DNA from: Neoroseomonas terrae
Lineage (GTDB): Bacteria; Pseudomonadota; Alphaproteobacteria; Acetobacterales; Acetobacteraceae
Direction: 5' to 3'
Assembly: GCF_018129025.1 (NCBI RefSeq)
Contig: NZ_JAAEDI010000030.1
Span: forward strand, 1 to 64,000
DNA length: 64,000 nt
The translations under genes were made by a program, and so were the position numbers. Position 1 is the first letter of the stretch; every line of letters starts with the position of its first letter. The notes beneath the pieces are model-generated. The model ran no database searches. It saw only the letters and a program-made list of their open reading frames with translations, and was not told where the DNA came from. Of the stretch, positions 1,795-57,976 are shown one piece after another.

Positions 1795-2285
1795 CTGGCG
1801 GGAGCGGTCGGATCAGGAAGGGGCTCTGCCACTTCCCGAACCCTACCCCGGCAAAGGCCGAAGGACCTTTGCAAACCTCGACCTGGCGCTGCGCGCATAG
1901 GGCCGGACGATGATCGTCATATGGCTCTGCGCACTGAAGCGATTTGACGGCAGGGGAATGGCCTTCGCGCCCGGCGCCAAATGATGGCGGTCCAGGCCAT
2001 CCATGGCCTGGCGGGGTGAGGCTCGGAGAGGGGCAGAGCCCCTCTCCGATCTGACCTTCGCGCAAATGGGCCCCTGCTCCTCCGAACCATCCCCCAGGAA
2101 GCGGGTCATCCTGGACCGCAGTCTGTTGGCCGGGGAAGCAACAGGAAGGCCACACCCCCGCGCATATTCGGGCACAGGGGCAGATTCGTGCTGGCCGCGC
2201 CGCCCGATACCAAGTCGAGGTTCGCAAAGGCCCTTCGGCCTTTGCCGGGGCGGGGTTCGGGGAGGGGCGACGCCCCTCCCCGATC
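1795..2285. repeat. Structured repeat element E1 (composite copy)
   Basis: This 491-bp element fills most of the gap between the nitrile hydratase operon and the opposing transglutaminase gene. Outer inverted arms carry the core hairpins at 1851-1872 and 2224-2245 (stem GCAAAGGCC/GGCCTTTGC), and a GAGGGGC-type hairpin at 2260-2280. Inside are extra, different hairpins at 1992-2011 (CCAGGCCAT/ATGGCCTGG), 2025-2047 (GGAGAGGGGC/GCCCCTCTCC) and a decayed one at 2094-2114 (CCAGGA/TCCTGG). It therefore looks like nested insertions of the same family. No coding signal is seen here; the short open frames are repeat translations. Confidence 0.85.
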
Positions 2286-2341
2286 GCTACTCACGAGACT
2301 TATCGCCGCGCCAATAGGGCAAGCGAACGTCGATCCAACGG

Positions 2342-3322
2342 TCAATCAGCAGGGCCGGCGGTGTCGGGCGGCGGTGGGGCGGGCGACGGCTCGACGGCCG
2401 GCGGTGCCTCGGGTGGCTCGAAGGGCGGCAGGGCATCGTCCGTGGTGCCCACCATCACGGCGACATCCACGTGCAGCCGGGCGAAGTCCTCGGGCTTGCC
2501 GAAATACCCGCCACCGACCGGCACCGCCTGTTCCGGCGTGCGCGTGGCGCCGACGCGGATCAGGTTCTCGCCGGCCACCAGCCCGTTGGTCGGATCGTAT
2601 TCCACCCAGCCTGCGCCAGGGACGTAGATCGCGCACCACGCATGCGTGGCCCCGCCGCCCACCACGCCGGAACCCGCCGCGTCATATAGGTAGCCGCTGA
2701 CGAAACGCGCCGCGAGACCAAGGCTGCGGGCCGCCTCCATCATCAGCAGCGTGAAGTCGCGGCACGCGCCCTTGCCGGATTCCAGCGTCTCGACCGGGCT
2801 GTTGGTGCCCTCGGCATCGCGCGCCTCATAGATGAACTCGTCCCGGATCGCCCGCGTCATCGCCTCGAGCATCGGCAGCGTCCGCGTCGCCCCGCCCTGC
2901 GCCAGGAAGCGCCGGGCCCAGGCGTCGATCCGCCGCTGCGGGTCGGGCAGGTGGCGTTCACGCAGCCGGGCGAGGTCCGGCGCCTCATCGGCAGCGTAGG
3001 AGAAGGGGAAGGTCTCGACGGTCGGGTCGACGGTCGCGCGCGGCTGTTCCGGCCCCGCGGGATAATGCGTCAGGTCGAGTTCGGAGATGATCTCGAGATG
3101 GTCGGTCCGCGCCTCCGGCTCCCAGTCGATCAGGCAGACGGAGTTGCCGAAGACGTCGTGCGCCCAGCGGGTGACGCGCGGCGTGGGGGAAACGCTGAGC
3201 GTCGCTTCATGCAGCCGCAGGTCGTGGCTGTCGCGCGGCCGGATCATGAGCCGGTGCGGCGTCAGCCCGACCGGGTTGCGGTAGTCGTAGCGCGTGATGT
3301 GGCGGATGCGCAGGCGGGCCAT
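2342..3322 (-). CDS. Transglutaminase-like cysteine peptidase family protein
   Basis: 326 aa. The N-terminal part (about 1-95, starting RIRHITRYDYRNPV) matches the bacterial transglutaminase N domain, and about 120-255 matches the transglutaminase core. The catalytic triad can be placed as Cys187 (GKGACRDF), His227 (GATHAWC) and Asp243 (EYDPTNG). The C-terminal tail from about 295 is Pro/Ala-rich and looks disordered. No signal peptide is seen, so it is probably cytoplasmic. Such proteins act as peptidases or cross-linking enzymes and are often beside circularly permuted ATP-grasp or alpha-E genes; neither is here. AGGAAA upstream of the ATG is a modest ribosome-binding site. Family secure, substrate unknown. 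Confidence 0.85.
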   Translation of the reverse strand: MARLRIRHITRYDYRNPVGLTPHRLMIRPRDSHDLRLHEATLSVSPTPRVTRWAHDVFGNSVCLIDWEPEARTDHLEIISELDLTHYPAGPEQPRATVDPTVETFPFSYAADEAPDLARLRERHLPDPQRRIDAWARRFLAQGGATRTLPMLEAMTRAIRDEFIYEARDAEGTNSPVETLESGKGACRDFTLLMMEAARSLGLAARFVSGYLYDAAGSGVVGGGATHAWCAIYVPGAGWVEYDPTNGLVAGENLIRVGATRTPEQAVPVGGGYFGKPEDFARLHVDVAVMVGTTDDALPPFEPPEAPPAVEPSPAPPPPDTAGPAD

Positions 3323-3443
3323 GCGGCGGGCTTTCCTGGAGTTGCAGCGTCCACCGCGCCCTCTGCGCTGCGGCCGTGTCGGGCCGGACCATAGTTGGCC
3401 GCAGCGTTCATGCGCGACCGGGAAAGGGCCGGCCCTCGTGTCC

Positions 3444-4142: not shown

Positions 4143-4285
4143 GGCGTGCTCCTCGGGAAGGCAATGTCAGCAGTATACTACGCCAAAGCCGGCGCCACCT
4201 TGCGCCAAGTCAACGGCCGGGGCTTAAAGGAGTTGCCGATTGCGACTATCAGGTCCGATCGGTCCAAGAAAGTGGAGGAGTGAAC

Positions 4286-5263: not shown

Positions 5264-5270
5264 CGCGATT

Positions 5271-5503
5271 GGAGGGGCCCTGGCCCTCGAGGCCACCCCG
5301 CCAAAGGCCGAAGGGCCTTTGGAAGCCGTCACTTGGCGCCGGGCATGACGGGAACCCGGAACCCCGTCAGCGGCCTCGGTGCACAAGGGCGGGTTTCGTC
5401 GTTGGTTCGGCCTTTGCGCCCGGCGCCAGACATTGGTTTCCAAAGGCCCTTCGGCCTTTGGAGGGGTGAGGTTTGGAGAGGGGCAACGCCAACGCCCCTC
5501 TCC
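5271..5503. repeat. Structured repeat element E2
   Basis: A 233-bp copy between the TAXI receptor gene and its permease gene. Core hairpins lie at 5301-5322 and 5440-5461 (stem CCAAAGGCC/GGCCTTTGG) in inverted orientation. The right outer hairpin at 5475-5503 has an enlarged loop. The element separates two genes that are normally adjacent. Its right arm is open in the permease frame, so the permease could be mis-annotated as starting inside it. Confidence 0.88.
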
Positions 5504-9413: not shown

Positions 9414-11615
9414 TCACCGCGTGAACCACGCCACCCCCCGTTGCAGCGCCTCCTCGCGGCCTTGCCGCGTCACCTCCCATAGCGGGTTCTCCACCGCGAG
9501 CCGCTGCCCGCCGTCGCGCTGCACCGGGCGGATCACCGCCCCCATCGACGACCGCGTCCGCAGCCCGAACAGGTCCAGCGGCACACGGATGAAGATGCCC
9601 TTGTCGAAGGAGCCCTCGCCGAACTGCGCATACGACACATCGGTCAGCGTCGCGAAGGCGCCGACCTCGATGCCGGAATCGAAGCGCCGCGCGATCTCGA
9701 CGGTGCCGCCCCAGTCGCCCGCCAGGTACCGCCCGCCGCGCAGTGTCGTCGTCAGGTTCCACCATGGCAGGTCGAGGTAGAGCGACACCTGCCCGGTCGT
9801 CACCCGATAGTCCTGCACCCCGAAGCGCTGGTCGTAGTCCCGCTGCGCCACGTAATTGACGTCGAGGCCGACGGCATAGGGCTGGTCGTGCGGCCGCCAC
9901 AGGATCTCGCCCGAGACGCCGGCGAACATCGGCTCCAGATACCCCGCCGTCGCGCGGGCGAAGACGTCCGGCGCCAGCGACCAGATGCGCTCTGCATAGA
10001 GCGAGGTGACTGCGAGGTCCCGCCCCTCCTCCGCATAGAGCGCGTAGTCCGAACGTACATGCGGCAGCAGCGAATCCGATGGCGCGGCGTTGGACAGGTT
10101 CTGCGCCACCACCTGCGCCACGCCCCCGCCGATCGAGAAGCCGGCGCCGAGTTCCATCCGCGCCCCCGCCGACACTGCCGCCTGCCACAGCACGGCGCGG
10201 GACGGATCACCGAGGAGCAGCCGCAGGCCCGGATCGACCCGCCAATCGAAGAACGGGCCCGGTGCGCGCACCGCGTCCTCGAAGCCGTCGCCGGGGGCCA
10301 TCAGCGTCGCGGTCGCGAAGATTTCCTCGGCGCTGCCCTGGCCGCGCGCCGCCGCCTCCATCGCCGAGCGGAGCACCATGATGCGCGCGATCTCCACGCC
10401 CGCCAGCGACCAGGCGACGACCACGCGCTCCACCTGCCGCGGCAGCAGCGGCTGCGCCGCCCGCATCACGCGCCCCGCCACCTGCGCCAGCGTGCGGTAC
10501 GGGCCGTCGCCGACGGCGATGCGCGCCTCCTCCCCCTCGATCGCGACGGCGCGGGGGCTGAGCCCCGTCGCGCGCAGCGCCTCGAACAACCGGGGGGCAA
10601 TGAGCCGCGCCTCGGGCGAGGCATCCTCGGGCCGCGCAGTCATCGGCGGCGGGCCCGGCAAGGGGATGCGCGGCGGATCGTCCGGATTCATCCGCACCGA
10701 CGCGCGCAGCAGGATGTCCGTGCCGTTCACGTATTGCACGCCGACATCCAGCCACTCATTCGTCCATTGCACGCCGGCATTCACGCGCGATGCCGACAGG
10801 CCGCGCAGCCCTGTGGCGTTGCCCGGATAGCCGCCGCGCTCGTCGCGCAGCCGGTCGCCGCTGAACTCGATCTTGGCCCGCAGCCCGTCCAGCACGCCCC
10901 AGGGTGTGTCGATCGGCGGCACCGACCATTCGATCCCGCCAAAGAAGGCGATGTCCTGCCCGTGGAAATACGTCCCCCAGCGCGGCGTGCCACCCTGGCC
11001 CACATTGCGCTGCCGCTCGGCGAAGCCGCCCCACAGATCGGTCAACGGATTGCCGGTATCGGCATACGTCCCGAGCCGCCCCCAGCCGATGCCGGCGCTG
11101 AAGTCGAAATCCCAGAACCGCTTGGACGCGACGAGGTATTCCCCGCCATAGATCCCCGTGCCGGCGATGTCCTGGATGCCAAGGGCCAGTGCCGGCCGCC
11201 AGTCATTTTCCTCCCACAGCCGGATCTTGATGTCGAAGGACCGGTCCGAGACCATCCCTTCCCCCGTCGTGCCGTTCAGTCGTTCACTGAGCCGGAAGGT
11301 CGTCTCCAGCCAGGGCAGGGCCTGGAAGTTCAGGAACCAGAAATTGCGCTGGTGCCGCAGCGCGAAGCCGGCCTCCAGCGTGCCATCGGGACGGAAGCGC
11401 GCATTGCGCATCTCGATGAGGCCGACACCGCCCCAGTCGGAGCCGGTTCTCTCCACCGGCATTCCCGGGACCTGCGCCCCTGCGGGAAAGGCGAGGAGGA
11501 CGGCGATGATGAAGACGGAGAGGGGCTTTGCCCCTCCCCGGACCCCACCCCACCAAAGGCCGAAAGGCCTTTGGAAACCTCCGTCTGATGCCGGGCACGG
11601 CTTGCGGTGCTTCAT
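9414..11615 (-). CDS. YjbH-family exopolysaccharide outer-membrane protein
   Basis: 733 aa from the ATG at 11615. The mature part starts GSDWGGVGLIEMRNARFRPDGTLEAGFA, typical of YjbH (DUF940) proteins, and ends in beta-barrel-like amphipathic strands closing with VAWFTR. The signal-peptide core is VFIIAVLLAFPAGAQ; all N-terminal residues before it are encoded by repeat E3, giving an N-region of about 33 residues. No other ATG, GTG or TTG in frame lies between the repeat and the hydrophobic core, so the repeat must supply the start. The frame also stays open upstream to 11903. Likely role: outer-membrane step of polymer secretion with the YjbF-like lipoprotein and the SLBB export protein. Confidence 0.8.
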   Translation of the reverse strand: MKHRKPCPASDGGFQRPFGLWWGGVRGGAKPLSVFIIAVLLAFPAGAQVPGMPVERTGSDWGGVGLIEMRNARFRPDGTLEAGFALRHQRNFWFLNFQALPWLETTFRLSERLNGTTGEGMVSDRSFDIKIRLWEENDWRPALALGIQDIAGTGIYGGEYLVASKRFWDFDFSAGIGWGRLGTYADTGNPLTDLWGGFAERQRNVGQGGTPRWGTYFHGQDIAFFGGIEWSVPPIDTPWGVLDGLRAKIEFSGDRLRDERGGYPGNATGLRGLSASRVNAGVQWTNEWLDVGVQYVNGTDILLRASVRMNPDDPPRIPLPGPPPMTARPEDASPEARLIAPRLFEALRATGLSPRAVAIEGEEARIAVGDGPYRTLAQVAGRVMRAAQPLLPRQVERVVVAWSLAGVEIARIMVLRSAMEAAARGQGSAEEIFATATLMAPGDGFEDAVRAPGPFFDWRVDPGLRLLLGDPSRAVLWQAAVSAGARMELGAGFSIGGGVAQVVAQNLSNAAPSDSLLPHVRSDYALYAEEGRDLAVTSLYAERIWSLAPDVFARATAGYLEPMFAGVSGEILWRPHDQPYAVGLDVNYVAQRDYDQRFGVQDYRVTTGQVSLYLDLPWWNLTTTLRGGRYLAGDWGGTVEIARRFDSGIEVGAFATLTDVSYAQFGEGSFDKGIFIRVPLDLFGLRTRSSMGAVIRPVQRDGGQRLAVENPLWEVTRQGREEALQRGVAWFTR

Positions 11616-11878
11616 GGCGGAGGTCGCGTTGCGCCCGGTATCCTGAATCGATTCGGGGCCTCGGGCGCAGCGACCGTCGTCTATCCGGCCGCGCGCCGCG
11701 CCGTGCTCCGAGTGTTCAGGTATCGTGTCGGGCCCGGCGCCCTGGACCGACACCGGGCGTCGGGCCCAACGCACGCTCTCCCTTGGTCCAACTGCCGCGC
11801 GTGGCACCAATCCAAGGTTTCCAAAGGCCTTTCGGCCTTTGGCGGGGTGAGGTTTGGAGAGGGGCGGCGCCCGTCTCC
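11517..11878. repeat. Structured repeat element E3, overlapping the YjbH-like gene start
   Basis: A 362-bp copy. Outer hairpins lie at 11517-11539 and 11856-11878; core hairpins at 11553-11574 and 11821-11842. The cores have loop GAAA on one strand instead of GAAG, with the same stem CCAAAGGCC/GGCCTTTGG. It sits between the SLBB export gene and the YjbH-like gene, both on the minus strand, and reaches into the coding region for the YjbH signal peptide. Confidence 0.88.
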
Positions 11879-11903
11879 ACCGCCAACAGCGCCGCAACAC
11901 CAC

Positions 11904-15056: not shown

Positions 15057-16919
15057 ATGGAGGGCGACGCCGCAGCGCTCGCGGCCGCCGCGCACGCCGC
15101 CATCCCGGCGAACTGGCACGGACCCTTTCCGGCCAATGCCCCGTCCCTGGGCATGGACCTGTTCTCCCCCGGCGACATCCGCCCCGTCTGGGAAGCGAAC
15201 CGGTTGCTTGCGGTACCACTGCTCGCTCTGGCGGCTCGGATCGCCCCGGCACACGGCCATCTCGTCCGCGCCGAAACCCTGCTGCACGAATGGGTCGCAG
15301 CGAACCCTCCGTTCCGCGGCCCCGCCTGGGCCTGCGGCCAGGAAGCGGCGCTGCGCGCCATGCATCTATGCCTGGCCCTCGCGCTGCTCGACGCCGACCG
15401 CACACCCTCATCGGCCATGCGCGTGCTGCTGTCGGCGCACGCCCGGCGCATCGCCGCGACCCGCGCCTATGCCGCCGCGCAGGACAACAACCACGCCGTC
15501 AGCGAGCCGGCCGGGCTCTTCGTCATCGGCCTCGTGCTCGGTGACCCGACGCTCGCGCGGTGCGGTGCGCGCGGCCTGGCGCGCGCTGTGGCGCGGCTGG
15601 TCGCACCGGACGGCGCCTTCGCCCAACCCTCACCCGGCTACCACCGGCTGTTGCTCGATACGCTCGCCGTCGCGGAGTGGTTCCGCCTTCACCACGGCGC
15701 ACCCCCCTTCGCGGCGCCGTTCGCCGATCGTGCGAAGGCAGCGACGCTGTGGCTACGGCGCGTGATGGAGCCGACGACCGGGGTCCTGCCGCGCTGCGGG
15801 GCGGTGGATGATTCGGTCTTCGCCGACCTCTCACTGCACGGGACGGCCGATGCGCGCGGCAGCGTCGGGCGGGCGGTGGCTCTGTTTGCGGCGGACGGCT
15901 CTGCTGGAGGGGCTTTGCGCCTCCAGACCACCCCACCAAAGGCCGAAGGGCCTTTGGAAACCTCGTCTTGGCTCCGGGTCCGGCTGACGGGATTGGTGAC
16001 GCAAGGCACGCCGGGGGCCGTTGAACCGGCTCCGATACCAGGCGGGGCCCCATCGCCGCTGGCGCTCAGCATCCCGTTCCCGCCCATCGCCGCAAGACAA
16101 GCCCGTGTCCCGCGCACGACGACGGTTCCATCACCTCGAACGAACCACAGGGCCCGGCACCATATCGAGGTTTCCAAAGGCCCTTCGGCCTTTGGTGGGG
16201 TGAGGTCCGGAGAGGGGCAAAGCCCCTCTCCGGTCGCCCCCTATTCGCCCCCACCGGACGCCCCCCCTCCAGCCCGCACCTGGCGCACCGAGGGCTGGTA
16301 CGGCGCATCGACCGACCGCTTCCGCCTCCTCCTCCGCACCGGCGCACCGCTTCGCTTCCGCCCGGCGCAGAACGACCTGCTGCATCTCGACCTCGCGCTG
16401 GATGGCGCGCCGCTGCTGATCGATGGCGGAACCGGCGCGTATAACCCGCCGCCGGGCCGCGACTGGTGGACGGCGGCGCTCGCCGGCACGGCCGGGCACA
16501 ACACGATCCAGTTCGATGGGGAGGAGCAGATGCCGCGCGTCGGCCGCTTCCTGTTCGCGCGCTGGCCCCGCTGCCGCGCCGTGCCCGGCGGCGCTGCCCT
16601 GCGCGACGCCGCCGGCCGGCGGCATGACCGTTGCGTGGATCTGTCGGGCGGCCGGGTCGTTGTCGCGGATCGCGCGGCCGGCGCCTTCTCGGCACTGGTG
16701 CTGCGCTGGCGGCTGGCGCCGGGCGAATGGCGCCTGACGGACGAGGGGGCGGCGGGGCCTCGGGCACGTTTGCGGCTGACCGCCGACGCGCCCCACCGCC
16801 TTCGCCTCGCGCAAGGCTGGCACAGCCCGGCCTATGGCAGGGTGGAGCCGGCGCCGGTGCTGGAACTCGCGGCGGCGGCGCCCGTCTCGCTTCTGACGAC
16901 GCTGGTCGAGGCCTGGTGA
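15057..16919 (+). CDS. Heparinase II/III-family protein carrying an in-frame repeat insertion
   Basis: 620 aa from the ATG. The alpha-helical part (WEANRLLAVPLLALA..., NNHAVSEPAGLFVIGLVLG, QPSPGYHRLLLDTLAVAEWFRL) and the C-terminal beta-sheet part (HLDLALDGAPLLIDGGTGAYNP, AGTAGHNTIQFDGEEQM) match the heparinase II/III-like lyases of polysaccharide clusters. Between them, 15906-16231 is repeat E4, translated without a stop, adding about 109 foreign residues. Coding resemblance also extends upstream of the ATG (LLLRADAARRLGPRACLLFAWHRLALRSG), open back to a stop at 14808, but with no ATG, GTG or TTG; CTG at 14829 is the first plausible start. Likely a periplasmic or cytoplasmic polymer-processing enzyme; activity of this copy is uncertain. 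Confidence 0.8.
   Translation: MEGDAAALAAAAHAAIPANWHGPFPANAPSLGMDLFSPGDIRPVWEANRLLAVPLLALAARIAPAHGHLVRAETLLHEWVAANPPFRGPAWACGQEAALRAMHLCLALALLDADRTPSSAMRVLLSAHARRIAATRAYAAAQDNNHAVSEPAGLFVIGLVLGDPTLARCGARGLARAVARLVAPDGAFAQPSPGYHRLLLDTLAVAEWFRLHHGAPPFAAPFADRAKAATLWLRRVMEPTTGVLPRCGAVDDSVFADLSLHGTADARGSVGRAVALFAADGSAGGALRLQTTPPKAEGPLETSSWLRVRLTGLVTQGTPGAVEPAPIPGGAPSPLALSIPFPPIAARQARVPRTTTVPSPRTNHRARHHIEVSKGPSAFGGVRSGEGQSPSPVAPYSPPPDAPPPARTWRTEGWYGASTDRFRLLLRTGAPLRFRPAQNDLLHLDLALDGAPLLIDGGTGAYNPPPGRDWWTAALAGTAGHNTIQFDGEEQMPRVGRFLFARWPRCRAVPGGAALRDAAGRRHDRCVDLSGGRVVVADRAAGAFSALVLRWRLAPGEWRLTDEGAAGPRARLRLTADAPHRLRLAQGWHSPAYGRVEPAPVLELAAAAPVSLLTTLVEAW
15906..16231. repeat. Structured repeat element E4, inside the heparinase-family gene
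   Basis: A 326-bp copy with outer hairpins at 15906-15924 and 16209-16231 and core hairpins at 15936-15957 and 16174-16195. It lies wholly within an open reading frame that continues on both sides with recognisable heparinase-family sequence. The two arms are read as ...TTPPKAEGPLETSSW... and ...IEVSKGPSAFGGVRSGEGQS.... Confidence 0.9.
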
Positions 16920-19720: not shown

Positions 19721-20914
19721 GTGACGTTCCTCGCCCCCCTCCGCGCTGCCACCTGCGCCCTCGAAGGTCTCGCCGCCGAGGTGCCCCCGGCGCGCATCCA
19801 CCTTTCCCCGCCGCATCTGACGGGAGGTGAGGCCGCGGCGCTGCTGGCGGTGCTGGACAGCGGCTGGGTCGCCCCGGCCGGTCCCGCCATCGCGGAGTTC
19901 GAGGCCGCGGTCGCAGCCGCCACCGGCTTTCCCCATGTGCTGGCCACGGCCTCGGGCACGGCGGCGCTGCACCTCGCCTTCCGGGTGCTGGACATTGCCC
20001 CCGGCGACGAGGTCTGGGCGCCCGGCTTCACCTTCGTCGCGACCGTCGCGCCGGCGGTGCAAATGGGCGCGGTGCCGCGCTTCCTCGATGTCGATCCTGC
20101 GTCCTGGACGCTCGACCCCGACCTGCTGCGCGCCGAACTGGCGGCCGCGGCACGCCGCGGCCGGCTGCCGCGGGCGGTCGTCGCCGTGGACATCTACGGC
20201 CAGGCCGCCGATCTCGACGGCATCCTCGCCGCCTGCGACCGCTGGGGGGTGCCGGTCGTCAGCGACAGTGCGGAAGGGCTGGGCGCGAGCATGCGCGGGC
20301 GGCACGCCGGGCGCGGTGCGCGGGTCGCGGCCCTCTCCTTCAATGGCAACAAGATCGTCACGGCGGGCGGCGGCGGGGCATTCGCCGCCGACGATCCGGT
20401 GCTGGTCGCGCGGGCGCGTCACCTGGCGCACCATGCCAAGGACCCGGCGCCGCACTATCAGCACTCGGTGACCGGCCATTCCTATGCCCTGTCCTCGCTG
20501 CTGGCGGCGGTCGGAACGGTGCAGCTCGCCGCGCTGGCGCCGCGCGTGGCAGCGCGCCGGGCCCTGTTCGACCGATACCGCGATGCGTTGTCCGACCTGC
20601 CGGGGATCAGCTTCATGCCGGAGGCGCCGTGGGGCACGGCGACGCGCTGGCTGACCGCAATGCTGGTGCGGCCCGACCGCTTCGGCATGGACCGGGAGGC
20701 GCTGCGGCAGCGTCTCGACGCCGCAGGCATCGAAAGCCGTCCGGTGTGGAAGCCGCTGCCGGACCAGCCGGCGTTCCGCGATGCGCCACGCGCCGGCGGC
20801 GCCGTTGCGGCGGCGCTGTTCGCGCAGGGCCTCTGCCTCCCCTCCGGCAACGGCTTGGCGGAAGCCGAGCAGGACCGCGTCATCGCCGTCATCCGAGGGG
20901 CCTGCCTGGCGTGA
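19721..20914 (+). CDS. DegT/DnrJ/EryC1/StrS-family sugar aminotransferase
   Basis: 397 aa, PLP-dependent. IHLSPPHLTGGEAAALLAVLDSGWVAPAGP at the N terminus and ATASGTAALHLAFRVL are family blocks; the Schiff-base lysine is in SFNGNKIVTAGGGGAF. The sequence resembles PglE/WecE-type enzymes that place an amino group on a keto-sugar nucleotide made by a 4,6-dehydratase; such a dehydratase is encoded at the end of the same operon. The start is GTG at 19721, 39 bp after the transferase gene. The following gene overlaps its stop by 4 bp (GTGA). Confidence 0.9.
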   Translation: MTFLAPLRAATCALEGLAAEVPPARIHLSPPHLTGGEAAALLAVLDSGWVAPAGPAIAEFEAAVAAATGFPHVLATASGTAALHLAFRVLDIAPGDEVWAPGFTFVATVAPAVQMGAVPRFLDVDPASWTLDPDLLRAELAAAARRGRLPRAVVAVDIYGQAADLDGILAACDRWGVPVVSDSAEGLGASMRGRHAGRGARVAALSFNGNKIVTAGGGGAFAADDPVLVARARHLAHHAKDPAPHYQHSVTGHSYALSSLLAAVGTVQLAALAPRVAARRALFDRYRDALSDLPGISFMPEAPWGTATRWLTAMLVRPDRFGMDREALRQRLDAAGIESRPVWKPLPDQPAFRDAPRAGGAVAAALFAQGLCLPSGNGLAEAEQDRVIAVIRGACLA

Positions 20915-26367: not shown

Positions 26368-26760
26368 CGGCATTGAAGGGGCTTTGCGCACCATGGCCGA
26401 AGAGCCTTTCTGATTAGCTCGATACTTTCGCTGTCGAGTTGGAGGGGCGTTGCCCCTCCAAGCCACCCCAGCAAAGGCCGAAGGGCCTTTGCAAACCTCA
26501 ACTTGGTGCGGGGCGCCGTTGGCGGGATGGGTGCCGGCACCCGCCCTTGCGCACGAAGCGCGCTTGGAGGGTGCAGCAAGCCCGCGAAGCCCAACGCCAA
26601 CAGATTGCGGTCCAGGGGGTCCAACCCCCTGGCGGGGTGGTTCGGAGGGGCAGCGCCCCTCCGATCTCCGATGGCGAAATAGCCGGCTAATCACGAAGGC
26701 CCGTCGGCCTTTGCTCGGCAGAGGTTCGGCGCAGGGCAAAGCGCCGTTCCGGTTGTCCGC
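26368..26760. repeat. Structured repeat element E5 plus decayed flanking copies
   Basis: The intact copy spans 26441-26662. Its left arm has hairpins at 26441-26459 and 26471-26492 (AAAGGCC type); its right arm has 26612-26632 (CCAGGGGGT/ACCCCCTGG) and 26644-26662, so the two arms have different core hairpins. Decayed AAAGGCC-type cores occur on both sides, about 26390-26412 and 26694-26722. The region fills the gap between the convergent dehydratase and PPK2 genes; no gene is seen in it. Confidence 0.85.
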
Positions 26761-30311: not shown

Positions 30312-30325
30312 TCCCGGCGGTGATC

Positions 30326-30531
30326 GGAGGGGCGCTGCCCCTCCGATCCTCCCCGCCAGGGGGTTGGACCCCCTGGACCGCAACATGTTGGCGCCGGGCG
30401 CGGCGCGCTTCGTGCGCAAGGGCACGTTGCAGCACCTGTTCTGCCAGCGGCGCACCGCACCAGGTCGAGGTTTGCAAAGGCCCTTCGGCCTTTGCTGGGG
30501 TGAGGTCCGGAGAGGGGCAAAGCCCCTTTCC
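30326..30531. repeat. Structured repeat element E6
   Basis: A 206-bp copy in the opposite orientation to E5, E7 and E9: left arm with hairpins at 30326-30344 and 30356-30376 (CCAGGGGGT/ACCCCCTGG), right arm at 30474-30495 (GCAAAGGCC/GGCCTTTGC) and 30509-30531. It lies between convergent genes, 14 bp after the aminotransferase stop. Confidence 0.9.
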
Positions 30532-30552
30532 GAATCCGCCCGCGGACGACCG

Positions 30553-40664: not shown

Positions 40665-40756
40665 GGCCGGCGGACGCCGCACCACCAGCGGACCGCGATG
40701 CGGCCTTGAGGACGCAAGAGCTCGCCTGGTGCCCCGATACTTTCGTTGTCGCCGTT

Positions 40757-40975
40757 GGAGGGGCTTTGCCCCTCCAAGCCTCCCCAGCAAAGGCCGAAAG
40801 GCCTTTGCAGACCTCCTCTTGGCGCCGGCGACACGGGCAAGAACGATGCCGGAACCCGCTCTCGCGCACGAAGCGACTTGGAGGGACAACGAGTCCACTG
40901 TGCCCGGCATCAACAGATTGCGGTCCAGGGGGTCCAACCCCCTGGCGGGGTGGTCCGGAGGGGCAGAGCCCCTCC
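40757..40975. repeat. Structured repeat element E7
   Basis: A 219-bp copy with mixed arms, like E5 and E9: left hairpins at 40757-40775 and 40787-40808 (AAAGGCC core with loop GAAA), right hairpins at 40925-40945 (CCAGGGGGT/ACCCCCTGG) and 40957-40975. It also shares inner sequence with E5 and E9 (the CGCACGAAGC and CAACAGATTGCGGT stretches). Between convergent genes. Confidence 0.9.
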
Positions 40976-41022
40976 GCTCTCCATTGGCGGACGTAGCGCG
41001 TCGATCAGGAAGCCGCGCGCCC

Positions 41023-42448: not shown

Positions 42449-44166
42449 GCCATGTCCTCCTCGAAGCCCGCGCGCCGGAGCGCGTAGAGCGGCAGTGATC
42501 CGAAGCCCTTGGCCGTCGGGATGCGGCCGGCATAGTCGCAGGCGAGCCCGGCCCCACGCGGCAGCAGCGCAACCTCGCAGGCGAAGGCCTCGGTGGCGAA
42601 GATGCGGCCGGGCGGGGTGACGGGCTCGATGCGGGCGGCGCGCGTCATCGCCCGGCCCGAATACTTGTCGGCCCGCTGCACCGCATCGTGCACCGGCAGC
42701 ATCGGGCCGAAATCCAGCGCGAAGCGCGGGTGGATCGGCGGTTCCTGCAACTCCAGCGCCGCGCGCATGTCGAAGGCGCAGGCGGCCGCGTCCGTCACAT
42801 CGGTGAAGGTGATCTGGACGGCATCGCCCCAGGCATTGCGATAGGTCGCGGGGTGGCGGTCGAGCGCCTTTCCCATCGCCACCAGCGGTCCTTCGTAGAA
42901 GCGGGCGAGGCCCTCATCGTCCAGCGCGCTGAAGCGCGGCAGGTCCCCGAACAGCACGGCCATGGCGCTGCGGCGCGGCTCCGGCGCCGTATCCGCACTG
43001 CCGTTGCGCGGCCAGGGCCAGCCGAGGAACAGCGACTGCCCCCCGGATGCCGTCCAGGCCGCGACATCCGCCCCAGTGCCGGCCGACCCGCGCGAGGGCA
43101 CGCGGTCCCAGGCCGCGACCTGCAAGGCCGTACCGTCCCGGTGGCGGGCATGCAGCCGGGCGAGGCCCATCGCCCGCCGCGCCGCCATGGCGAGGTGCAG
43201 GTCATCATCCGGGAAGGGCCGCTCATCCAGCTGGATCATCCGCACGCGCGACAGGGCGGCACGGTATCGCGGCACCCAGCGCGCGCCCGCCGGAGCCACG
43301 GACGCCGCCTCATAGGTATCGGCATCGCAGGGCAGCACGACAGTCGGCGTGACGCCGGCGCGCAGCAGCGCCTCCACCGCCAGGATGTCCAGCCCCGCCG
43401 CCAGCCCGCCGAAGGCCATGCCGACATTCTGCGCGGCAATCGCCGCATCGAGGGACGCCGCGATCAGCGCCTCGATCGCCGGGTCGTCCTGCCCGAGCTT
43501 CGGCATGTGGCCGGTGTAGTGCAGCACCGACGGGATGCGCAGCGCATCGACGATGGCCGGGGAGATGCCGAGGGCCGTCGCCTCCCGCCGCAATTGCCGG
43601 CGCGTGGTGGCGCGGGCGGACAGGTCGCTGCCGCCGCGCGCCTCGGCTTCATCGAGCGCGCGGCGCGCCGCGAGGTCCCGGCCGGCGAGCAGCAGCGCCT
43701 CCGCCTCGGTCGCGGCCGACCAGTAGTCACCGGAGTCGCGATGGTTGCGCAGCACCGTCTCGGCGATGGTGACGGAGCGTGCGTTGTCCCCGCCCATCAT
43801 GTGCAGCGCGGCGGCGTTGACGCCGTGCCAGCCGGCACCCCCGCGCCGCCACAGCGATTCGTAGCGCTGCGCCGCCTCGGCCAGCAGCGGGCCGCGCGCG
43901 GCAGTCGGCTGCTCGAAGGCGCGGTCCTTGATCAGCCGCGCCCCGAGGGCCGTGATCTCCGGGTCCGATTCCGCATGCAGGCGAAGCTGGTGGAACAGGT
44001 CTAGCGCGCGGCCCGTGGCCCCGGCGCGCGCGATGGTCAGCGTGGCGCGGTAGCGCAGCGCGGCATCGTCGGGATCCTCGGCCAAGGCGGCCATCGCCCT
44101 GTCATGGGCGGAGAGAAGGAGGCCCTCCGCCTCGAGGGCCAGGACCTCCGCGAGGGAGTCGGACAT
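42445..44166 (-). CDS. TPR-SLOG-nucleotide cyclase-like signalling protein
   Basis: 573 aa. Residues 1-200 are TPR-like helices. Residues about 211-330 look like a SLOG nucleotide-binding domain (VLHYTGHM, then NVGMAFGGLAAGLDILAVEALLRAGVTPTVVLPCD and WVPRYRAALSRVRMI). Residues about 400-570 resemble a class III adenylate/guanylate cyclase: AVLFGDLPRFSALD with metal Asp408, NAWGDAVQITF with Asp448 and SGRAMTRAARIEPVTPPGRIFA. The lysine expected just before GD is Asn/Ala/Trp here, so the product need not be cAMP. The ATG at 44166 is chosen at the homology start. The Crp-like gene is coupled downstream and a TIR gene is divergent across 125 bp. Confidence 0.72.
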   Translation of the reverse strand: MSDSLAEVLALEAEGLLLSAHDRAMAALAEDPDDAALRYRATLTIARAGATGRALDLFHQLRLHAESDPEITALGARLIKDRAFEQPTAARGPLLAEAAQRYESLWRRGGAGWHGVNAAALHMMGGDNARSVTIAETVLRNHRDSGDYWSAATEAEALLLAGRDLAARRALDEAEARGGSDLSARATTRRQLRREATALGISPAIVDALRIPSVLHYTGHMPKLGQDDPAIEALIAASLDAAIAAQNVGMAFGGLAAGLDILAVEALLRAGVTPTVVLPCDADTYEAASVAPAGARWVPRYRAALSRVRMIQLDERPFPDDDLHLAMAARRAMGLARLHARHRDGTALQVAAWDRVPSRGSAGTGADVAAWTASGGQSLFLGWPWPRNGSADTAPEPRRSAMAVLFGDLPRFSALDDEGLARFYEGPLVAMGKALDRHPATYRNAWGDAVQITFTDVTDAAACAFDMRAALELQEPPIHPRFALDFGPMLPVHDAVQRADKYSGRAMTRAARIEPVTPPGRIFATEAFACEVALLPRGAGLACDYAGRIPTAKGFGSLPLYALRRAGFEEDMA

Positions 44167-47653: not shown

Positions 47654-47699
47654 GGCTGGAGGGCGGCGCCACCCTTTATGCGCGGATGTGACCGACCAG

Positions 47700-47962
47700 A
47701 GAGGGGCTTTGCCCCTCTCCGGACCTCACCCCAGCAAAGGCCGAAGGGCCTTTGCAAACCTCCACTTGGCGCCGGGCAACACGGCCTGTCAGGAATGGTG
47801 GGGTCATCGTCATGCGCAGCGCCAGGGATTGCTCCCTGATGATGGGCACGGAGGTCGCGCCGGCATGGCAAAGGCCCGCCCCGCCCGGCACCAAGTCAGG
47901 GTTTCCAAAGGCCCTTCGGCCTTTGGCGGGGTGAGGTTTGGAGAGGGGCAGCGCCCCTCTCC
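47700..47962. repeat. Structured repeat element E8
   Basis: A 263-bp copy between the convergent GGT and gshA genes. Outer hairpins at 47700-47718 and 47940-47962; core hairpins at 47734-47755 (outer pair G-C: GCAAAGGCC/GGCCTTTGC) and 47905-47926 (outer pair C-G: CCAAAGGCC/GGCCTTTGG). The two arms of one element thus differ by a compensatory base-pair swap. Confidence 0.9.
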
Positions 47963-47998
47963 AATTCCCTGGGAGCGACCTCGGCCGAGGTCAGCGCG

Positions 47999-51671: not shown

Positions 51672-51689
51672 CGCCGCCCGTCCGGAGGG

Positions 51690-52439: not shown

Positions 52440-52541
52440 GCGTTGCTGCCCCTGCTGGATGATCGGCCACTATAGGCAGCGTCGCGCGGGGCGGGAGGGC
52501 GCGGGTTCTGGCGGCTGGGCATTCTCGCCGACAGTCGGAAC

Positions 52542-52770
52542 GGGGAAGGGCTTTGCCCCTCCCCGGACCCCTCCCCAGCAAAGGCCGAAGGGCCTTTGCA
52601 AACCTCCTTCTGGCACCGTGCGCCGCACGGTCAGGAAACGGAACCGGCGCCCGCCCTGCGCACGAGGCACCTCAAGGGGGCAGCGCGCCCCGCTATGCCC
52701 GGCACCAACAGATTGCGGTCCAGGTGCTCCAAGCACCTGGCGGGGTGGTTCGGAGGGGCAGCGCCCCTCC
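52542..52770. repeat. Structured repeat element E9
   Basis: A 229-bp copy between two minus-strand genes. Left hairpins at 52542-52564 and 52578-52599; right hairpins at 52720-52740 and 52752-52770. The 52720 hairpin has stem CCAGGTGCT/AGCACCTGG where E5, E6 and E7 have CCAGGGGGT/ACCCCCTGG: changes on both sides of the stem preserve pairing. Confidence 0.9.
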
Positions 52771-52830
52771 GATCTTCAACGGTGGAAGCAGCAAGGTCAT
52801 CACCCCTTCCCCCATCGGCACGCCGCCCGG

Positions 52831-54111: not shown

Positions 54112-54822
54112 TTACTTGCGCGGGGCGCCGCCGCCGCCGCGGCCCTGCCCGGCGCCGTCGTTCGGGTCGGAATCGGTGATGCCCGTGCCGCCTCGCTGGC
54201 GCCATCCGCTGCCGTAGCCCGACGGATCCGTAGGATCGCCGTCATTGATGCCGGTATAGGGCCGGCCCTGCGTCCGCGGCGCCTGGCGATAGCCACCACG
54301 GCCATTGCCTGGCGCGTCATTCGGGTCGTTGTCGGTCAGCCCGGTGCGAGACCCGCCGCGATAGCCGCCACGGCCAGCACCGGGAGGATCGTTGGGGTCG
54401 CCATCGGTCAGACCCGTGCGCGGTCGCCCGCGAGAGCCGCCGCGGCCGTTGCCCGGCGGATCGTTCGGATCCCCGTCGGTCAGGCCGGTGCGCGAACCGC
54501 CGCGGTAGCCGCCACGGCCATAGCCGGCCCCGTCATTGGGATCCGAATCGGTGATGCCGGTCCGTGGGCGCCCGCGATAGCCCCCGCGGCCATAGCCCAC
54601 GCCGTCGTTCGGGTCGGAGTCCGTGAGGCCGGTGCGGTACTGCGCAAGCGTCGGCTCGATCGCTTCCGCGGCCCGCCCGGCGGCCGTGGTGGCAACACCG
54701 AGCGCTGCGATCCGCAGCACCAGCAGCCGCCGCCCCAGGGCCCTGCGCGCAGGCTCCGGCCGCGCTTCCTCGCCCTCGGCCGGCGGCGCGCCGTGCGGCG
54801 CATGCCTCTCGGTCATGGTCAT
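54112..54822 (-). CDS. Exported or membrane-anchored protein with seven TDxDPND repeats
   Basis: 236 aa. After a charged N terminus comes one hydrophobic stretch (LLVLRIAALGVATTAAGRA, about residues 33-51), then seven units of the form TGLTDSDPNDGVGYGRGGYRG, the first four 24 residues long with RPR or GSR endings. Each unit has an Asp-rich DxDPxD core that could bind a divalent cation, and a Gly/Arg/Tyr-rich remainder. GAGAGG lies upstream of the ATG at 54822; 54816 is an alternative. The gene is divergent from the Tct cluster. No enzyme family is recognised; a surface or scaffold role is a guess. Confidence 0.6.
   Translation of the reverse strand: MTMTERHAPHGAPPAEGEEARPEPARRALGRRLLVLRIAALGVATTAAGRAAEAIEPTLAQYRTGLTDSDPNDGVGYGRGGYRGRPRTGITDSDPNDGAGYGRGGYRGGSRTGLTDGDPNDPPGNGRGGSRGRPRTGLTDGDPNDPPGAGRGGYRGGSRTGLTDNDPNDAPGNGRGGYRQAPRTQGRPYTGINDGDPTDPSGYGSGWRQRGGTGITDSDPNDGAGQGRGGGGAPRK
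54128..54637. repeat. Tandem repeat, about 72-bp period, coding for TDxDPND units
   Basis: Seven in-frame units, the first four at 72 bp and the others varied in length (about 69-90 bp). They are marked at DNA level by GATCGTTxGG, GGTCGGAATC and GTCATTCGGGTC-like stretches. Units differ more in the Gly/Arg region than in the DPND core, so the repeats are not recent identical copies. Confidence 0.75.
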
Positions 54823-54966
54823 CCCTCTCAACCCCTGCGCCATCATCGTGCGGAGGCCCCGTTCCCGGCAAGCGGTACGAAAGCGAAAGGCGTGAGGCAG
54901 CGCACCGCTGGCGGTTCACCGCCGGTGTGATCGAAGAAGCCGGTGCCGCCGGGCGGCGGCAATTCG

Positions 54967-55170
54967 TCAGCGACGGCGCGGCGGCGCGAAGGTGTCGCTG
55001 TCCGTCGGTTCCGTCGGCCGAACCGTCCGCTGGTCCATGCCCTGGGCGGTGGGCAGGCGGTGGCCTTTCAGATCGCTGACCGCCATGGGGAGGGTGGCAG
55101 CGCCGGCCGTCGAGACGGTCGGCAGCAAGAGGCGACGATGGAGACGGGACGGCGTGACGGGGCAGGTCAT
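54967..55170 (-). CDS. Possible small exported protein
   Basis: 67 aa from the ATG at 55170. The N terminus (MTCPVTPSRLHRRLLLPTVSTAGAATLPMAV) has basic residues followed by a mild hydrophobic stretch, somewhat like a signal peptide; the end is PTEPTDSDTFAPPRRR. There is no clear ribosome-binding site. Its 3' end lies 145 bp upstream of the repeat-protein start, on the same strand. The start borders the dyad at 55175. It could be non-coding; no family recognised. Confidence 0.25.
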   Translation of the reverse strand: MTCPVTPSRLHRRLLLPTVSTAGAATLPMAVSDLKGHRLPTAQGMDQRTVRPTEPTDSDTFAPPRRR

Positions 55171-55174
55171 GCAA

Positions 55175-55205
55175 GGGATTATTTGCGAATGCGTCGCAAT
55201 ATCCC
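55175..55205. promoter_or_regulatory. Candidate operator dyad upstream of the Tct transporter cluster
   Basis: An inverted pair TTGCGA (55183-55188) and TCGCAA (55194-55199), five bases apart, lies inside a wider GGGAT...ATCCC frame. It is in a locally AT-rich patch about 105 bp before the tctC ATG. The spacing suits a dimeric regulator of the GntR, LysR or TetR kind, but no regulator gene is adjacent. Confidence 0.4.
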
Positions 55206-55307
55206 AGACCTCACCCAGGTTGCGCAAGCCCGAATTCTTCCCGTTTGCGCGGGGCGCGGGCCCGTCGCATGCTGCCATCGCCAGGGGAAACGACCGGACC
55301 GCACGCC

Positions 55308-56267: not shown

Positions 56268-56279
56268 CCGGCGATCGCC

Positions 56280-56786
56280 ATGAAGCACGCTGCGCTTCCC
56301 GATCTCACGGTCGGCCTCGCCGTCACCGCGCTCGGCGTGCTGACGGCCTGGCTGACCTGGGTCATTCCCGTCACGCCGGTCTATGCGGTAGTCGGCCCGA
56401 AGCTGGTTCCAGCGGTCGTCGCCGCGGCGCTGGTCGTGCTGGGGCTGCTGCTGTGCGGCTCGGCGCTCCGCGGCGGCTGGAGCGCGAAGCTGCCGGAGGT
56501 GCAGGACGCCGGCCCGCCGAACCTCGTCTCGATCGGCTGGCTCTGCCTCGGCATGGTGCTGAACCTCGTGCTGATCGTGCCGCTCGGCTTCGCGATCGGC
56601 GCCGCGGTGCAGTTCGTCTGCACGGCGCGCGCCTTCGGGTCCCGCGCGCCGCTGCGTGATGCGATCATCGCGCTCATCGTCTCGCTCGGCGCCTTCTTCC
56701 TGTTCGTCGAGGCGCTGGGCGTGAACATCGGCGCCGGCGTGCTGGAAGGCGCCATTCTGCGAGCATTGGGTCAGGAGGTGCCGTGA
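56280..56786 (+). CDS. tctB: Tripartite tricarboxylate transporter small membrane subunit (TctB)
   Basis: 168 aa with four hydrophobic helices: DLTVGLAVTALGVLTAWLTWVIP, FGPKLVP-like VVGPKLVPAVVAAALVVLGLLLCG, LVSIGWLCLGMVLNLVLIVPLGFAIGAAVQFVCTARAFGS and DAIIALIVSLGAFFLFVEALGVNIGAGVLEG. The order and the PxxxP loop after helix 1 match TctB. It lies 12 bp after tctC. The permease subunit TctA is not next but 1.2 kb downstream, after phzF and repeat E10. Confidence 0.88.
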   Translation: MKHAALPDLTVGLAVTALGVLTAWLTWVIPVTPVYAVVGPKLVPAVVAAALVVLGLLLCGSALRGGWSAKLPEVQDAGPPNLVSIGWLCLGMVLNLVLIVPLGFAIGAAVQFVCTARAFGSRAPLRDAIIALIVSLGAFFLFVEALGVNIGAGVLEGAILRALGQEVP

Positions 56787-57676
56787 GGGCGTTCCGCTTC
56801 GTTACCGTCGACGTCTTCACCGACCGTCGTTTCGGCGGCAATCAGCTCGCGGTGTTTCCCGATGCGCGCGGGCTGTCGGATGCCGAGATGCAGTCCCTCG
56901 CCGCCGAGTTCAATCTGAGCGAGACCACCTTCGTCCTGCCCCCGGAGAAGCCGCACAACAGCGCACGCGTGCGTATCTTCAACCGCGTTGCGGAGATGCC
57001 CTTCGCCGGCCATCCGAATGTCGGCACCGCCTATGTGCTCGGCCGCGAAGACGAGGCGAGCCCTCGCACCTATCGCTTCGAGGAACCTGCGGGGCTCGTT
57101 GAGGTGGCGCTGCTGCGTGACGAGACAGGCCGCGTGCTTGGTGCGGAGGTGGCAGCGCCGCAGCCGCTGCGCGTCGGAGCCGAGCTGCCCGTCTCCGTCG
57201 CCGCCGCCTGCGCCGGCTTGTCGAAGGATGCGATCGTCACCGCCCGGCACGTGCCGACGCTCGCGACCGATGGCGGCAATCCACGCCTGCTGACGGAGGT
57301 GACGCGCGAGGGGCTGACGGCCGCCGCGCCGGACCTCGGCGCGTTCCGCCGCGCGGTGGAGGCATATCCCGACCAGACGCGCGGATTCCTCTCGCTGTAC
57401 CTGTACTGCCGGGACGGCGCACAGGTGCGGACGCGGATGTTCTCGCCGCTGACAGGCACCTGGGAAGATTCGGCGACCGGCAGCGCCGCGACGCCACTGG
57501 CCGGCTTCCTGCTGTCGCTCGACGGCGGGGACGACGGTGCCTGGGAAATGCTGCAGGGCGTGGAGATGGGGCGGCCGTCGTTGCTCCTGGCGGGCGCGCG
57601 GCGGACGCCGGAAGGCATCCGCGCGCGCGTCGGCGGGCATTGCGTGCCGGTGCTGCGGGGCGAGGCGGTGCTGTGA
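56783..57676 (+). CDS. PhzF-family isomerase/epimerase
   Basis: 297 aa from GTG 56783, overlapping the tctB stop. RAFRFVTVDVFTDRRFGGNQLAVFPDARGLSDAEMQSLAAEFNLSETTFVLPP at the N terminus (Glu of LSETTFV is the family's catalytic acid), RIFNRVAEMPFAGHPNVGTAYVL, and near the end TRMFSPLTGTWEDSATGSAATPLAGFLL, the second-half GxxxxDPATGSA-like block. PhzF enzymes isomerise small acids; only a few make phenazines, and there are no other phenazine genes here. Its place within the tct cluster suggests it acts on the imported carboxylate. Confidence 0.9.
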   Translation: MRAFRFVTVDVFTDRRFGGNQLAVFPDARGLSDAEMQSLAAEFNLSETTFVLPPEKPHNSARVRIFNRVAEMPFAGHPNVGTAYVLGREDEASPRTYRFEEPAGLVEVALLRDETGRVLGAEVAAPQPLRVGAELPVSVAAACAGLSKDAIVTARHVPTLATDGGNPRLLTEVTREGLTAAAPDLGAFRRAVEAYPDQTRGFLSLYLYCRDGAQVRTRMFSPLTGTWEDSATGSAATPLAGFLLSLDGGDDGAWEMLQGVEMGRPSLLLAGARRTPEGIRARVGGHCVPVLRGEAVL

Positions 57677-57692
57677 TGGCGTCGGGGGGCCA

Positions 57693-57976
57693 GAGAGGGG
57701 CTCTGCCCCTCTCCGGACCTCTCCCCGCCAAAGGCCGAAGGGCCTTTGGAAACCGATACTTGGTTCCGGGCCTGTCGGGTGGTCGTGACCGGGGCAGATC
57801 GCGTCGCGTCGACGGCCGCGCGAAACGCCATGGACAGGATCGGCACCAAGACCCACTTCTGCACGGACGGCGTATCGCCGGGATCGGCACGCCTGTCGTG
57901 CCCTCCGCCAGATCGAGGTTTCCAAAGGCCCTTCGGCCTTTGGTGGGGGAAGCTCGAAGGGGGCAAGGCCCCCTTC
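57693..57976. repeat. Structured repeat element E10
   Basis: A copy of about 284 bp between phzF and tctA. Left hairpins at 57693-57713 and 57728-57749; right core at 57922-57943. The right outer hairpin, 57956-57976, is GAAGGGGG/CCCCCTTC rather than GAGAGGGGC/GCCCCTCTC: another paired change. The element splits a transporter operon. Confidence 0.88.

What the first reader, a model, noticed from the sequence alone, without database searches (positions are those of the whole stretch)
1795..57976. Ten copies of a structured repeat family with compensatory stem changes
E1-E10 share inverted arms, each with a core hairpin (AAAGGCC/GGCCTTT with loop GAAG or GAAA, or a CCAGG-type stem) followed by a GC-rich GAGGGGC-type hairpin. 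Stems change in pairs between copies: CC..GG versus GC..GC at the ends of the core, CCAGGGGGT/ACCCCCTGG versus CCAGGTGCT/AGCACCTGG versus CCAGGCCAT/ATGGCCTGG, and GAGGGGC/GCCCCTC versus GAAGGGGG/CCCCCTTC. Paired change means the fold, not the base sequence, is kept. The density is about one per 6.4 kb. The plan resembles REP/BIME or MITE elements mobilised by an external enzyme, but I do not recognise the family.
Basis: seen in the sequence. Interest (0 to 1): 0.85.

Follow-up and report, generated by a model that had tools for sequence, protein, structure and literature searches.

The report
Mobile repeats built from triple-strand hairpins
This bacterium and its relatives carry many copies of a small mobile DNA repeat whose arms look shaped by evolution to fold into three-stranded DNA hairpins, a structure whose role in living cells has been an open question.

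Summary
The ten copies are real. Each is an inverted set of ~85-nt arms, each arm with two hairpins; the host is an Acetobacteraceae near Neoroseomonas. A profile finds 53 elements in 864 kb of this genome. Paired stem changes are confirmed. In 29 elements whose two arms differ, the linker fits its own arm better in 21, ties in 8, is worse in none. The code (G·G-C, A·A-T, T·A-T) is that of a purine-motif intrastrand DNA triplex, class I of Holder et al. 2015: a known kind of motif, but my searches found neither this family nor three-way covariation in print. The elements look mobile: one lies in frame inside a heparinase-like gene that lacks it in a relative, and one 95.7% pair sits in differing flanks. 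They avoid divergent intergenic regions. No Y1 transposase match in 24 genus genomes speaks against REP/RAYT. Mobilising enzyme, in-cell structure and function remain unknown.

The parts
1812..2284 (.). E1, four arms (><><): A 1812-1896 +, B 1967-2050 -, degenerate B 2068-2132 +, A 2201-2284 -; convergent gene pair
   Evidence: arm profile; sequence; gene context
5268..5501 (.). E2, A arm 5268-5346 + and A arm 5416-5501 -; codirectional genes
   Evidence: the syntenic G001 site shows GC-rich hairpins by eye but no arm-profile hit
11516..11879 (.). E3, A arms 11516-11598 + and 11798-11879 -; codirectional genes
   Evidence: G001 has a B/A element there; G003 has a class I motif of other sequence
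15905..16233 (.). E4, A arms 15905-15979 + and 16151-16233 -, in frame inside a heparinase II/III-like ORF (15057-16919 +)
   Evidence: insertion present in own genome and G001, absent from the G003 ortholog
26439..26751 (.). E5, A 26439-26516 +, B 26588-26667 -, degenerate A 26685-26751 -; convergent genes; synteny break
30323..30533 (.). E6, B 30323-30401 +, A 30450-30533 -; convergent genes; synteny break
40755..40979 (.). E7, A 40755-40828 +, B 40900-40979 -; convergent genes
   Evidence: G003 site holds two class I motifs of another sequence family
47697..47965 (.). E8, A arms 47697-47778 + and 47882-47965 -; convergent genes (gamma-glutamyltranspeptidase / GCS2); synteny break
52539..52774 (.). 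E9, A 52539-52622 +, B 52695-52774 -; codirectional genes; synteny break
   Evidence: many homologous A/B copies including the middle in G001
57691..57976 (.). E10, A arms 57691-57772 + and 57898-57976 -; codirectional genes
   Evidence: G003 site holds two class I motifs of the other sequence family
47699..47732 (-). Example triplex unit (E8 left arm): on this strand third strand GGGGTGAGG, 3-nt turn, purine strand, 3-nt loop, pyrimidine strand
   Evidence: sequence; third-strand code and covariation over all arms

Best explanation
E1-E10 belong to a family of small (two-arm forms 208-364 bp, four-arm forms to 473 bp in the sample), non-coding, mobile elements of Acetobacteraceae. Arms face each other as inverted repeats. 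Each arm carries an outer hairpin (purine strand P, 3-nt loop, pyrimidine strand Y), a short turn and a linker that mirrors Y, then an inner hairpin with a shorter mirror tail. Read on the opposite strand, this is third strand - turn - P - loop - Y, which can fold as a purine-motif intrastrand DNA triplex. SHOWN: Watson-Crick stem covariation; three-way covariation with the purine-motif code; presence or absence at an orthologous site inside a gene; one near-identical pair in differing flanks; avoidance of divergent (promoter-bearing) intergenic regions. INFERRED: selection acts on the triplex as single-stranded DNA, because purine-motif triplexes are reported not to form in RNA; the fold is used when the element is copied or when a replication fork meets it; the 3'-end location is where insertions are least harmful, with a possible side role as a two-way block between transcription units. 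The mobilising enzyme is unidentified.
For: 112 distinct arms (of 139 with a 3-nt HP1 loop, of 150 called without using linker content): 93.7% of 793 purine positions form allowed triads against 71.7% (sd 1.2, max of 1000 = 76.0%) with linkers swapped; one arm per distinct P (39 arms): 93.3% against 64.3%, max 72.7%. Controls that keep relatedness: mean phi 0.80 at offset 0 parallel, between -0.30 and 0.26 at every other offset tested, antiparallel included, over three row sets; within-element control 21 better, 8 tie, 0 worse of 29, triads 404/421 against 337/421. HP2 with its tail follows the same rule more weakly: 74.1% against 57.7%, 1 of 2000 swaps as high. The pyrimidine-motif code explains less, 84.5%. 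Class I motifs: 97 in 864 kb, 0 in one shuffled copy. Mobility: in-frame insertion in the heparinase-like gene in own genome and G001, absent in G003; 95.7% pair over 210 nt in differing flanks. Context of 53 elements: 26 convergent, 25 codirectional, 1 in a gene, 1 divergent; divergent 1/53 against 63/220 gaps of 150 bp or more, p=3e-6.
Against: No structure was measured. The closest studied motif (TMECO/PIT) forms a triplex in vitro as a single strand, but the double-stranded form stays duplex, in vivo DMS footprinting gave no support, and no promoter or terminator activity was seen (PMC4666352). Pyrimidine-type triplexes do form in RNA, so an RNA reading with 84.5% fit is not excluded. About 6% of third-strand positions break the code (C or G opposite A in 27 of 173; non-C opposite G in 23 of 620). 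No target-site duplication signal (flank direct repeats of 6 nt or more in 1 of 32 against 10% of controls) and no cognate transposase. Both members of the 95.7% pair lack the left outer hairpin's first strand, and about 25 nt before it are also partly alike. Absence at one relative could be loss. Sites turn over: among 11 relatives, arms were called downstream of GCS2 in G001 only, and the class I scan of that region found none in any of the 11, G001 included.
Confidence: 0.6

Rival explanations
1. RNA-level element: two-way transcription terminator or 3'-end mRNA stabiliser. Hairpins (perhaps with a pyrimidine-type third strand) in the RNA are selected at gene ends, and copies spread because they are useful.
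For: 26 of 53 elements lie between convergent genes and 1 of 53 between divergent genes. Strong hairpins (z -4.0 to -5.8 for four arms folded as DNA). Of six syntenic window sites in G001 five give arm-profile hits (E1 shortened, E4 partly degenerate) and E2 shows hairpins by eye only; of five in G003 three hold class I motifs of another sequence family. Pyrimidine-type triplexes can form in RNA.
Against: No T tract follows the hairpins (read from the sequence). The third-strand code is the purine motif, reported not to form in RNA (PMC4666352). An element sits in frame inside a gene. Downstream of GCS2 and GGT most relatives have no called arm: arms in 1 of 11 and 2 of 9. E. coli PIT elements had no terminator activity.
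Confidence: 0.2
2. REP/BIME element moved by a RAYT (Y1) transposase.
For: Palindromic, inverted pairs, gene 3' ends, mosaic A/B arms.
Against: Y1_Tnp gave no match in 24 of 24 genus genomes with the control ringing in 5 of 14. Arms are ~85 nt with two hairpins, not a 20-40 nt REP (size from the abstract of PMC3733652; GTAG tag from its passages; the tag was not searched for here).
Confidence: 0.06
3. Ordinary MITE with palindromic ends. The mirror relation between linker and hairpin is a by-product of C-rich composition and shared ancestry of a few subfamilies.
For: 33 of 53 elements link in one cluster through full-length matches of at least 68%; C runs mirror themselves; subfamilies exist.
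Against: Register-specific association, within-element control, one-per-P control, and covariation even at the top base pairs (P ...GAC with linker ...CTG: L081, L213, L224). No TSD signal; Y1 absent.
Confidence: 0.08
4. G-quadruplex / i-motif element: G runs, not the mirror, are selected.
For: G-rich strand; 27 of 112 distinct arms have four runs of three or more G; G-rich triplex sequences can also form quadruplexes (PMC4666352).
Against: 85 of 112 lack that pattern (two-tetrad forms not scored); a quadruplex does not require A positions to mirror one another.
Confidence: 0.06

Closest known systems
Intrastrand triplex motifs of bacteria: PIT / BoxC / TMECO (Holder et al. 2015, PMC4666352; Hoyne and Maher, as cited there)
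   Same: Three stems in one strand, purine-motif triads GGC, AAT, TAT, a 3-nt loop; intergenic; in E. coli five pairs lie as inverted repeats that combine two types (section read). Our outer hairpins meet the ITxF class I rule.
   Different: TMECO is class II with another sequence (0 exact matches in the window and 280 loci), 37-nt consensus, reported as always intergenic, more often upstream of ORFs, and not associated with transposons, phages or plasmids. Here: class I, two hairpins per arm, composite elements of 208-473 bp, divergent gaps avoided, evidence of mobility, three-way covariation across genera. Acetobacter and Roseomonas do not occur in its main text; its supplements could not be read.
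REP / BIME with RAYT (PMC3733652, abstract and passages)
   Same: Palindromic, high-copy, mosaic, gene 3' ends.
   Different: No Y1 transposase match in the genus; larger two-hairpin arms. That paper reports its CGTC-tagged repeats missing from Acetobacteraceae.
Rickettsia palindromic elements (RPE) (MITE review PMC10969869, passages)
   Same: Short palindromic element inserted in frame inside a protein gene (E4).
   Different: One in-gene case among 53 here; no sequence comparison with RPEs was made.
RIME / ABC mosaic elements of rhizobia (recalled, no call)
   Same: Alphaproteobacterial intergenic mosaic palindromes.
   Different: Not compared by sequence; no mirror third strand recalled.

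Membership tests
Intrastrand triplex motif, class I (Holder et al.) | Third strand (A/G/T), loop 1-6, purine stem, loop 1-6, pyrimidine stem; stem 6-15, at most one mismatch | tested here: met
   My own scans near this rule: 97 motifs in 864 kb, 0 in one shuffled copy; fixed stems 7, 8, 9: 57, 80, 46 against 1, 0, 0
Intrastrand triplex motif, class I (Holder et al.) | Forms a triplex in vitro | not testable with these tools
   Needs CD/NMR
TMECO / BoxC | Sequence CCCTCNCCCN3-6GGGNGAGGGN3GGGNGAGGG | tested here: not met
   0 matches in window and in 280 loci, exact pattern only
REP / BIME (RAYT-mobilised) | RAYT/Y1 transposase in the genome | tested here: not met
   0 of 24 genus genomes, controls 5 of 14
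REP / BIME (RAYT-mobilised) | GTAG or CGTC tag at hairpin foot | not tested
   No tag search was run
MITE | Terminal inverted repeats | tested here: met
   Inverted arms in '><' order in 32 of 32 two-arm elements; 16 of 53 have a single arm
MITE | Target-site duplication | tested here: not met
   Flank direct repeats of 6 nt or more in 1 of 32 against 10% in controls; shorter TSDs not excluded
MITE | Parent transposon with the same ends | tested here: inconclusive
   Only Y1 and Y2 transposases searched (Y2 control rang in 0 of 14); DDE families not tried
Rfam families | Match at gathering score | tested here: not met
   0 in the window
Intrinsic terminator | Hairpin followed by T run | tested here: not met
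   Read by eye from the ten copies; no terminator scan was run

The most novel reading that the evidence does not exclude
The selected trait of this mobile family is a DNA triple helix formed within one strand. Three-way covariation across genera would then be the first evolutionary evidence that intrastrand purine-motif triplexes form and matter in living bacteria, and the elements would be transposed, or would act at replication forks, through an unknown protein that recognises the triplex-capped hairpin.
Probability: 0.4. Interest if true: 0.88.

Novelty: new variant of a known kind. Interest (0 to 1): 0.7.

Why it matters
Whether intrastrand DNA triplexes exist in cells has been left open: the best-studied bacterial motif folds in vitro but gave no in vivo footprint. 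Mirror covariation cannot arise by ordinary strand copying (my reasoning), so it is evidence of selection that does not depend on a footprint. This family supplies a large set of natural variants, many with all three strands changed together, so the question can be tested directly. It also offers a mobile element of unknown mechanism and a possible source of rearrangement.

Tried and rejected
RAYT/Y1 mobilisation: rejected for this genus. IS91-type Y2: none in own genome, one match in G187 of 24; its control rang in 0 of 14, so this is weak. Antiparallel alternative pairing of linker with P (an RNA switch): rejected by offsets. Pyrimidine-motif triplex: fits worse, 84.5%, not excluded. Quadruplex: three-tetrad pattern in 27 of 112 arms. 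A pattern for a perfect G5 mirror hairpin over 241 genomes of the class found 3 genomes, own included, 0 backwards; too narrow to map distribution. The four loci hit outside the family held no class I motif with seven or more triads, which the five-G pattern by itself could not have given. Reversed sequence as a control for hairpin pairs was useless, because palindromes survive reversal; discarded; a two-base-block shuffle was used. My first 'empty site' reading of G003 at E7 and E10 was withdrawn: these sites hold another element family. Synteny breaks at E5, E6, E8 and E9 against both G001 and G003 suggest recombination at elements, but breaks also occur where there is no element (against G001 near 7.5, 24.3, 39.3, 45 and 55 kb; against G003 near 4-8, 28, 39, 45 and 61.7 kb), the count was made by hand, and the bias of convergent gaps was not tested; 20001-23500 and 43501-44000 were not queried. 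TSDs sought, no signal. Literature searches; supplementary files could not be read.
Full report
WHAT IS THERE. The window is contig C30 of a 5.77-Mb draft genome of an Acetobacteraceae close to Neoroseomonas (GCS2 protein 90% identical in N. alba). The ten copies are confirmed. Each arm, read from its outer end inwards, is: outer hairpin HP1 (purine strand first, 3-nt loop), a short C-rich linker, inner hairpin HP2 (type A CAAAGGCC-GAAR-GGCCTTTG; type B CCAGGNNNN...CCTGG), then a tail such as AAACC or ACCGC and a half-conserved TTGGYGCCGGGC. Arms point towards each other with HP1 outside. In 864 kb of the same genome (window included) an arm profile finds 97 arms in 53 elements: 32 of the form '><', 16 single arms, 5 with three or four arms; no two-arm element is '<>'. 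Two-arm forms span 208-364 bp.

STEM COVARIATION. On 69 own-genome arms 95.9% of cells pair (shuffled 85.8%), 16 of 21 pairs have two-sided changes, in 133 cells against 32.8, and slid registers fall to 58.2% or less. The alignment was fitted to the model and leans towards it.

THE THIRD STRAND. Arms from several genera showed that the linker mirrors HP1's 3' strand, which makes it the parallel complement of the purine strand P: GGAGAGGGG with CCTCACCCC; GGAAGGGG with CCTACCCC; GAGAGGGAC with CTCTCCCTG (L224); GGGGAAGGGC with CCCCATCCCG (L081). To test this, arms were called without using linker content (two hairpins, gap 3-16, ACC within 6 nt after HP2): 150 arms, 71 own and 79 other, the latter including same-genus relatives. 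Eleven without a 3-nt HP1 loop were dropped and 27 duplicates merged, leaving 112; a few doubtful calls in coding sequence were left in. With the register fixed (linker end at HP2, P end at the loop), 93.7% of 793 purine positions give G with C, or A with A or T, against 71.7% (sd 1.2, max 76.0% of 1000) when linkers are swapped; one arm per distinct P, 93.3% of 253 against 64.3% (max 72.7%); of these, other genomes only, 92.8% of 180 against 61.4% (max 71.1%). Swapping ignores relatedness, so two controls keep it. Shifting the register by 1-3 either way, or reading antiparallel, takes phi from 0.80 to between -0.17 and 0.15 on all 112 arms, and between -0.30 and 0.26 in the own-genome and other-genome subsets, the former over only 2-4 positions. 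Within elements whose two arms differ in P, the linker fits its own arm better in 21, ties in 8, and is worse in 0 of 29; triads 404 of 421 against 337 of 421. P is all purine in the seven tested positions in 87 of 100 arms. HP2 and its tail follow the same code more weakly (27 distinct pairs, 74.1% against 57.7%, 1 of 2000 swaps as high); the calling rule itself asked for ACC in the tail.

WHY A TRIPLEX. On the opposite strand the order is third strand - turn - P - 3-nt loop - Y, with G opposite G-C and A or T opposite A-T. That is the purine-motif class I rule of the ITxF programme (method section). A pyrimidine-motif third strand would need T opposite A; A and T are equally common there (73 and 73 of 173), so it explains 84.5%. 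A three-tetrad quadruplex pattern is present in 27 of 112. Antiparallel re-pairing fails. Class I motifs number 97 in 864 kb and 0 in one two-base-block shuffle. Purine-motif triplexes are reported not to form in RNA, pyrimidine ones to form (PMC4666352); this points to single-stranded DNA as the level of action, which is inference. Stem covariation alone could come from template-switch repair of imperfect palindromes, but a mirror copy cannot be made by copying a strand (both my knowledge).

MOBILITY. E4 lies inside an open reading frame of 620 codons with a heparinase II/III C-terminal domain. The G001 ortholog carries an element at the same place, in frame; the G003 ortholog has about 24 residues there instead. 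Gain is the simpler reading, but three genomes do not exclude loss. Two own-genome elements are 95.7% identical over 210 nt; their flanks differ apart from about 25 partly similar nt before the left end, and both lack the first strand of the left outer hairpin. Flanks show no TSD signal. Y1 transposases gave no match in 24 of 24 genus genomes. Gamma-glutamyltranspeptidase (GGT) and GCS2, neighbours here across E8, lie on different contigs in G001, with arms called downstream of each. Over the relatives fetched, arms are called downstream of GCS2 in 1 of 11 and of GGT in 2 of 9; the class I scan adds a weak hit near GGT in G011 and finds none after GCS2 in any.

SITES. Of 53 elements 26 lie between convergent genes, 25 between codirectional genes, 1 (E4) in a gene, 1 between divergent genes; the script had counted E4 as codirectional. 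Gaps of 150 bp or more, which include element gaps, are 47 convergent, 110 codirectional and 63 divergent (my own simple gene finder). Convergent odds ratio 3.5, p=1e-4; divergent p=3e-6. Six window sites are syntenic with G001 (E1, E2, E3, E4, E7, E10): five give arm-profile hits there (E1 shortened, E4 partly degenerate), E2 only hairpins seen by eye. Of five comparable G003 sites, E3, E7 and E10 hold class I motifs of other sequence, E1 and E4 none. At E7 and E10 the G003 element reads AGGGGGG-turn-GGGGGGAG-loop-CTCCCCCC with GGAGGGGG-TTC-GGGGGAGGT as partner, class I motifs without a bad triad. Synteny with both relatives breaks at E5, E6, E8 and E9, and also at about five places without an element; suggestive only.

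DISTRIBUTION. The arm model matches at E of 0.001 or less in 23 of 39 genomes of the relatives search: all 23 of the genus, none of 16 from other families of the class (at most 112 candidates were scored a genome, a cap that the own and five other genomes reach). In a family draw it matches 68 of 150 genomes over 50 of 102 genera, many weakly; in a class draw 2 of 143, own included, the other at E 2.7e-5. Searches used stricter filters and scored at most 29-30 candidates a genome.

LITERATURE. Holder et al. 2015 (abstract, first part of the introduction, results parts 1 and 2 of 4, section 18, discussion part 1 of 2, one method section, and passages) describe intrastrand triplex motifs in bacteria and TMECO in detail. 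The word stem 'covaria' does not occur in its main text. A search for triplex, covariation, bacteria and DNA triplex gave one paper, on a human lncRNA (listing only); 'intrastrand triplex' gave 19 papers, seen as a listing. Four forms of the core sequence occur in no library paper. PMC3733652 and PMC10969869 were seen as abstract or passages.

VERDICT. Known kind of motif, new composite family, with what I believe, from those searches only, is the first covariation evidence for the third strand. Structure in cells, function and mobilising enzyme remain to be shown.

Noticed in passing
window 54112-54846 (-): 72-bp tandem repeats (24 codons per unit) in a predicted coding region (D3 and D8).
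   Followed up: no
window 34726-36357: Direct repeats, some spaced 381 bp, in a coding region (D4 and D10).
   Followed up: no
window 26.4-30.5 kb and 47.7-52.8 kb: Synteny with both G001 and G003 breaks at both ends of the segments E5-E6 and E8-E9, as if they had moved as cassettes bounded by elements.
   Followed up: partly
L259, L193, L197: Another palindromic repeat, with GATCAGGTGATTCCACCTGATC or a near form, fills intergenic sites in G003, G021 and G015.
   Followed up: no
window 52538-52776 (E9): The A/B subfamily keeps a conserved middle; at least two dozen matches in G001 run through it.
   Followed up: partly
genus genomes of 2.6-4.1 Mb (G002, G005, G007, G008, G009, G013, G014, G017, G019, G022): Small-genome members of the genus have 1-6 arm matches, members of 4.2 Mb or more have 24 to 112, the cap.
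   Followed up: no
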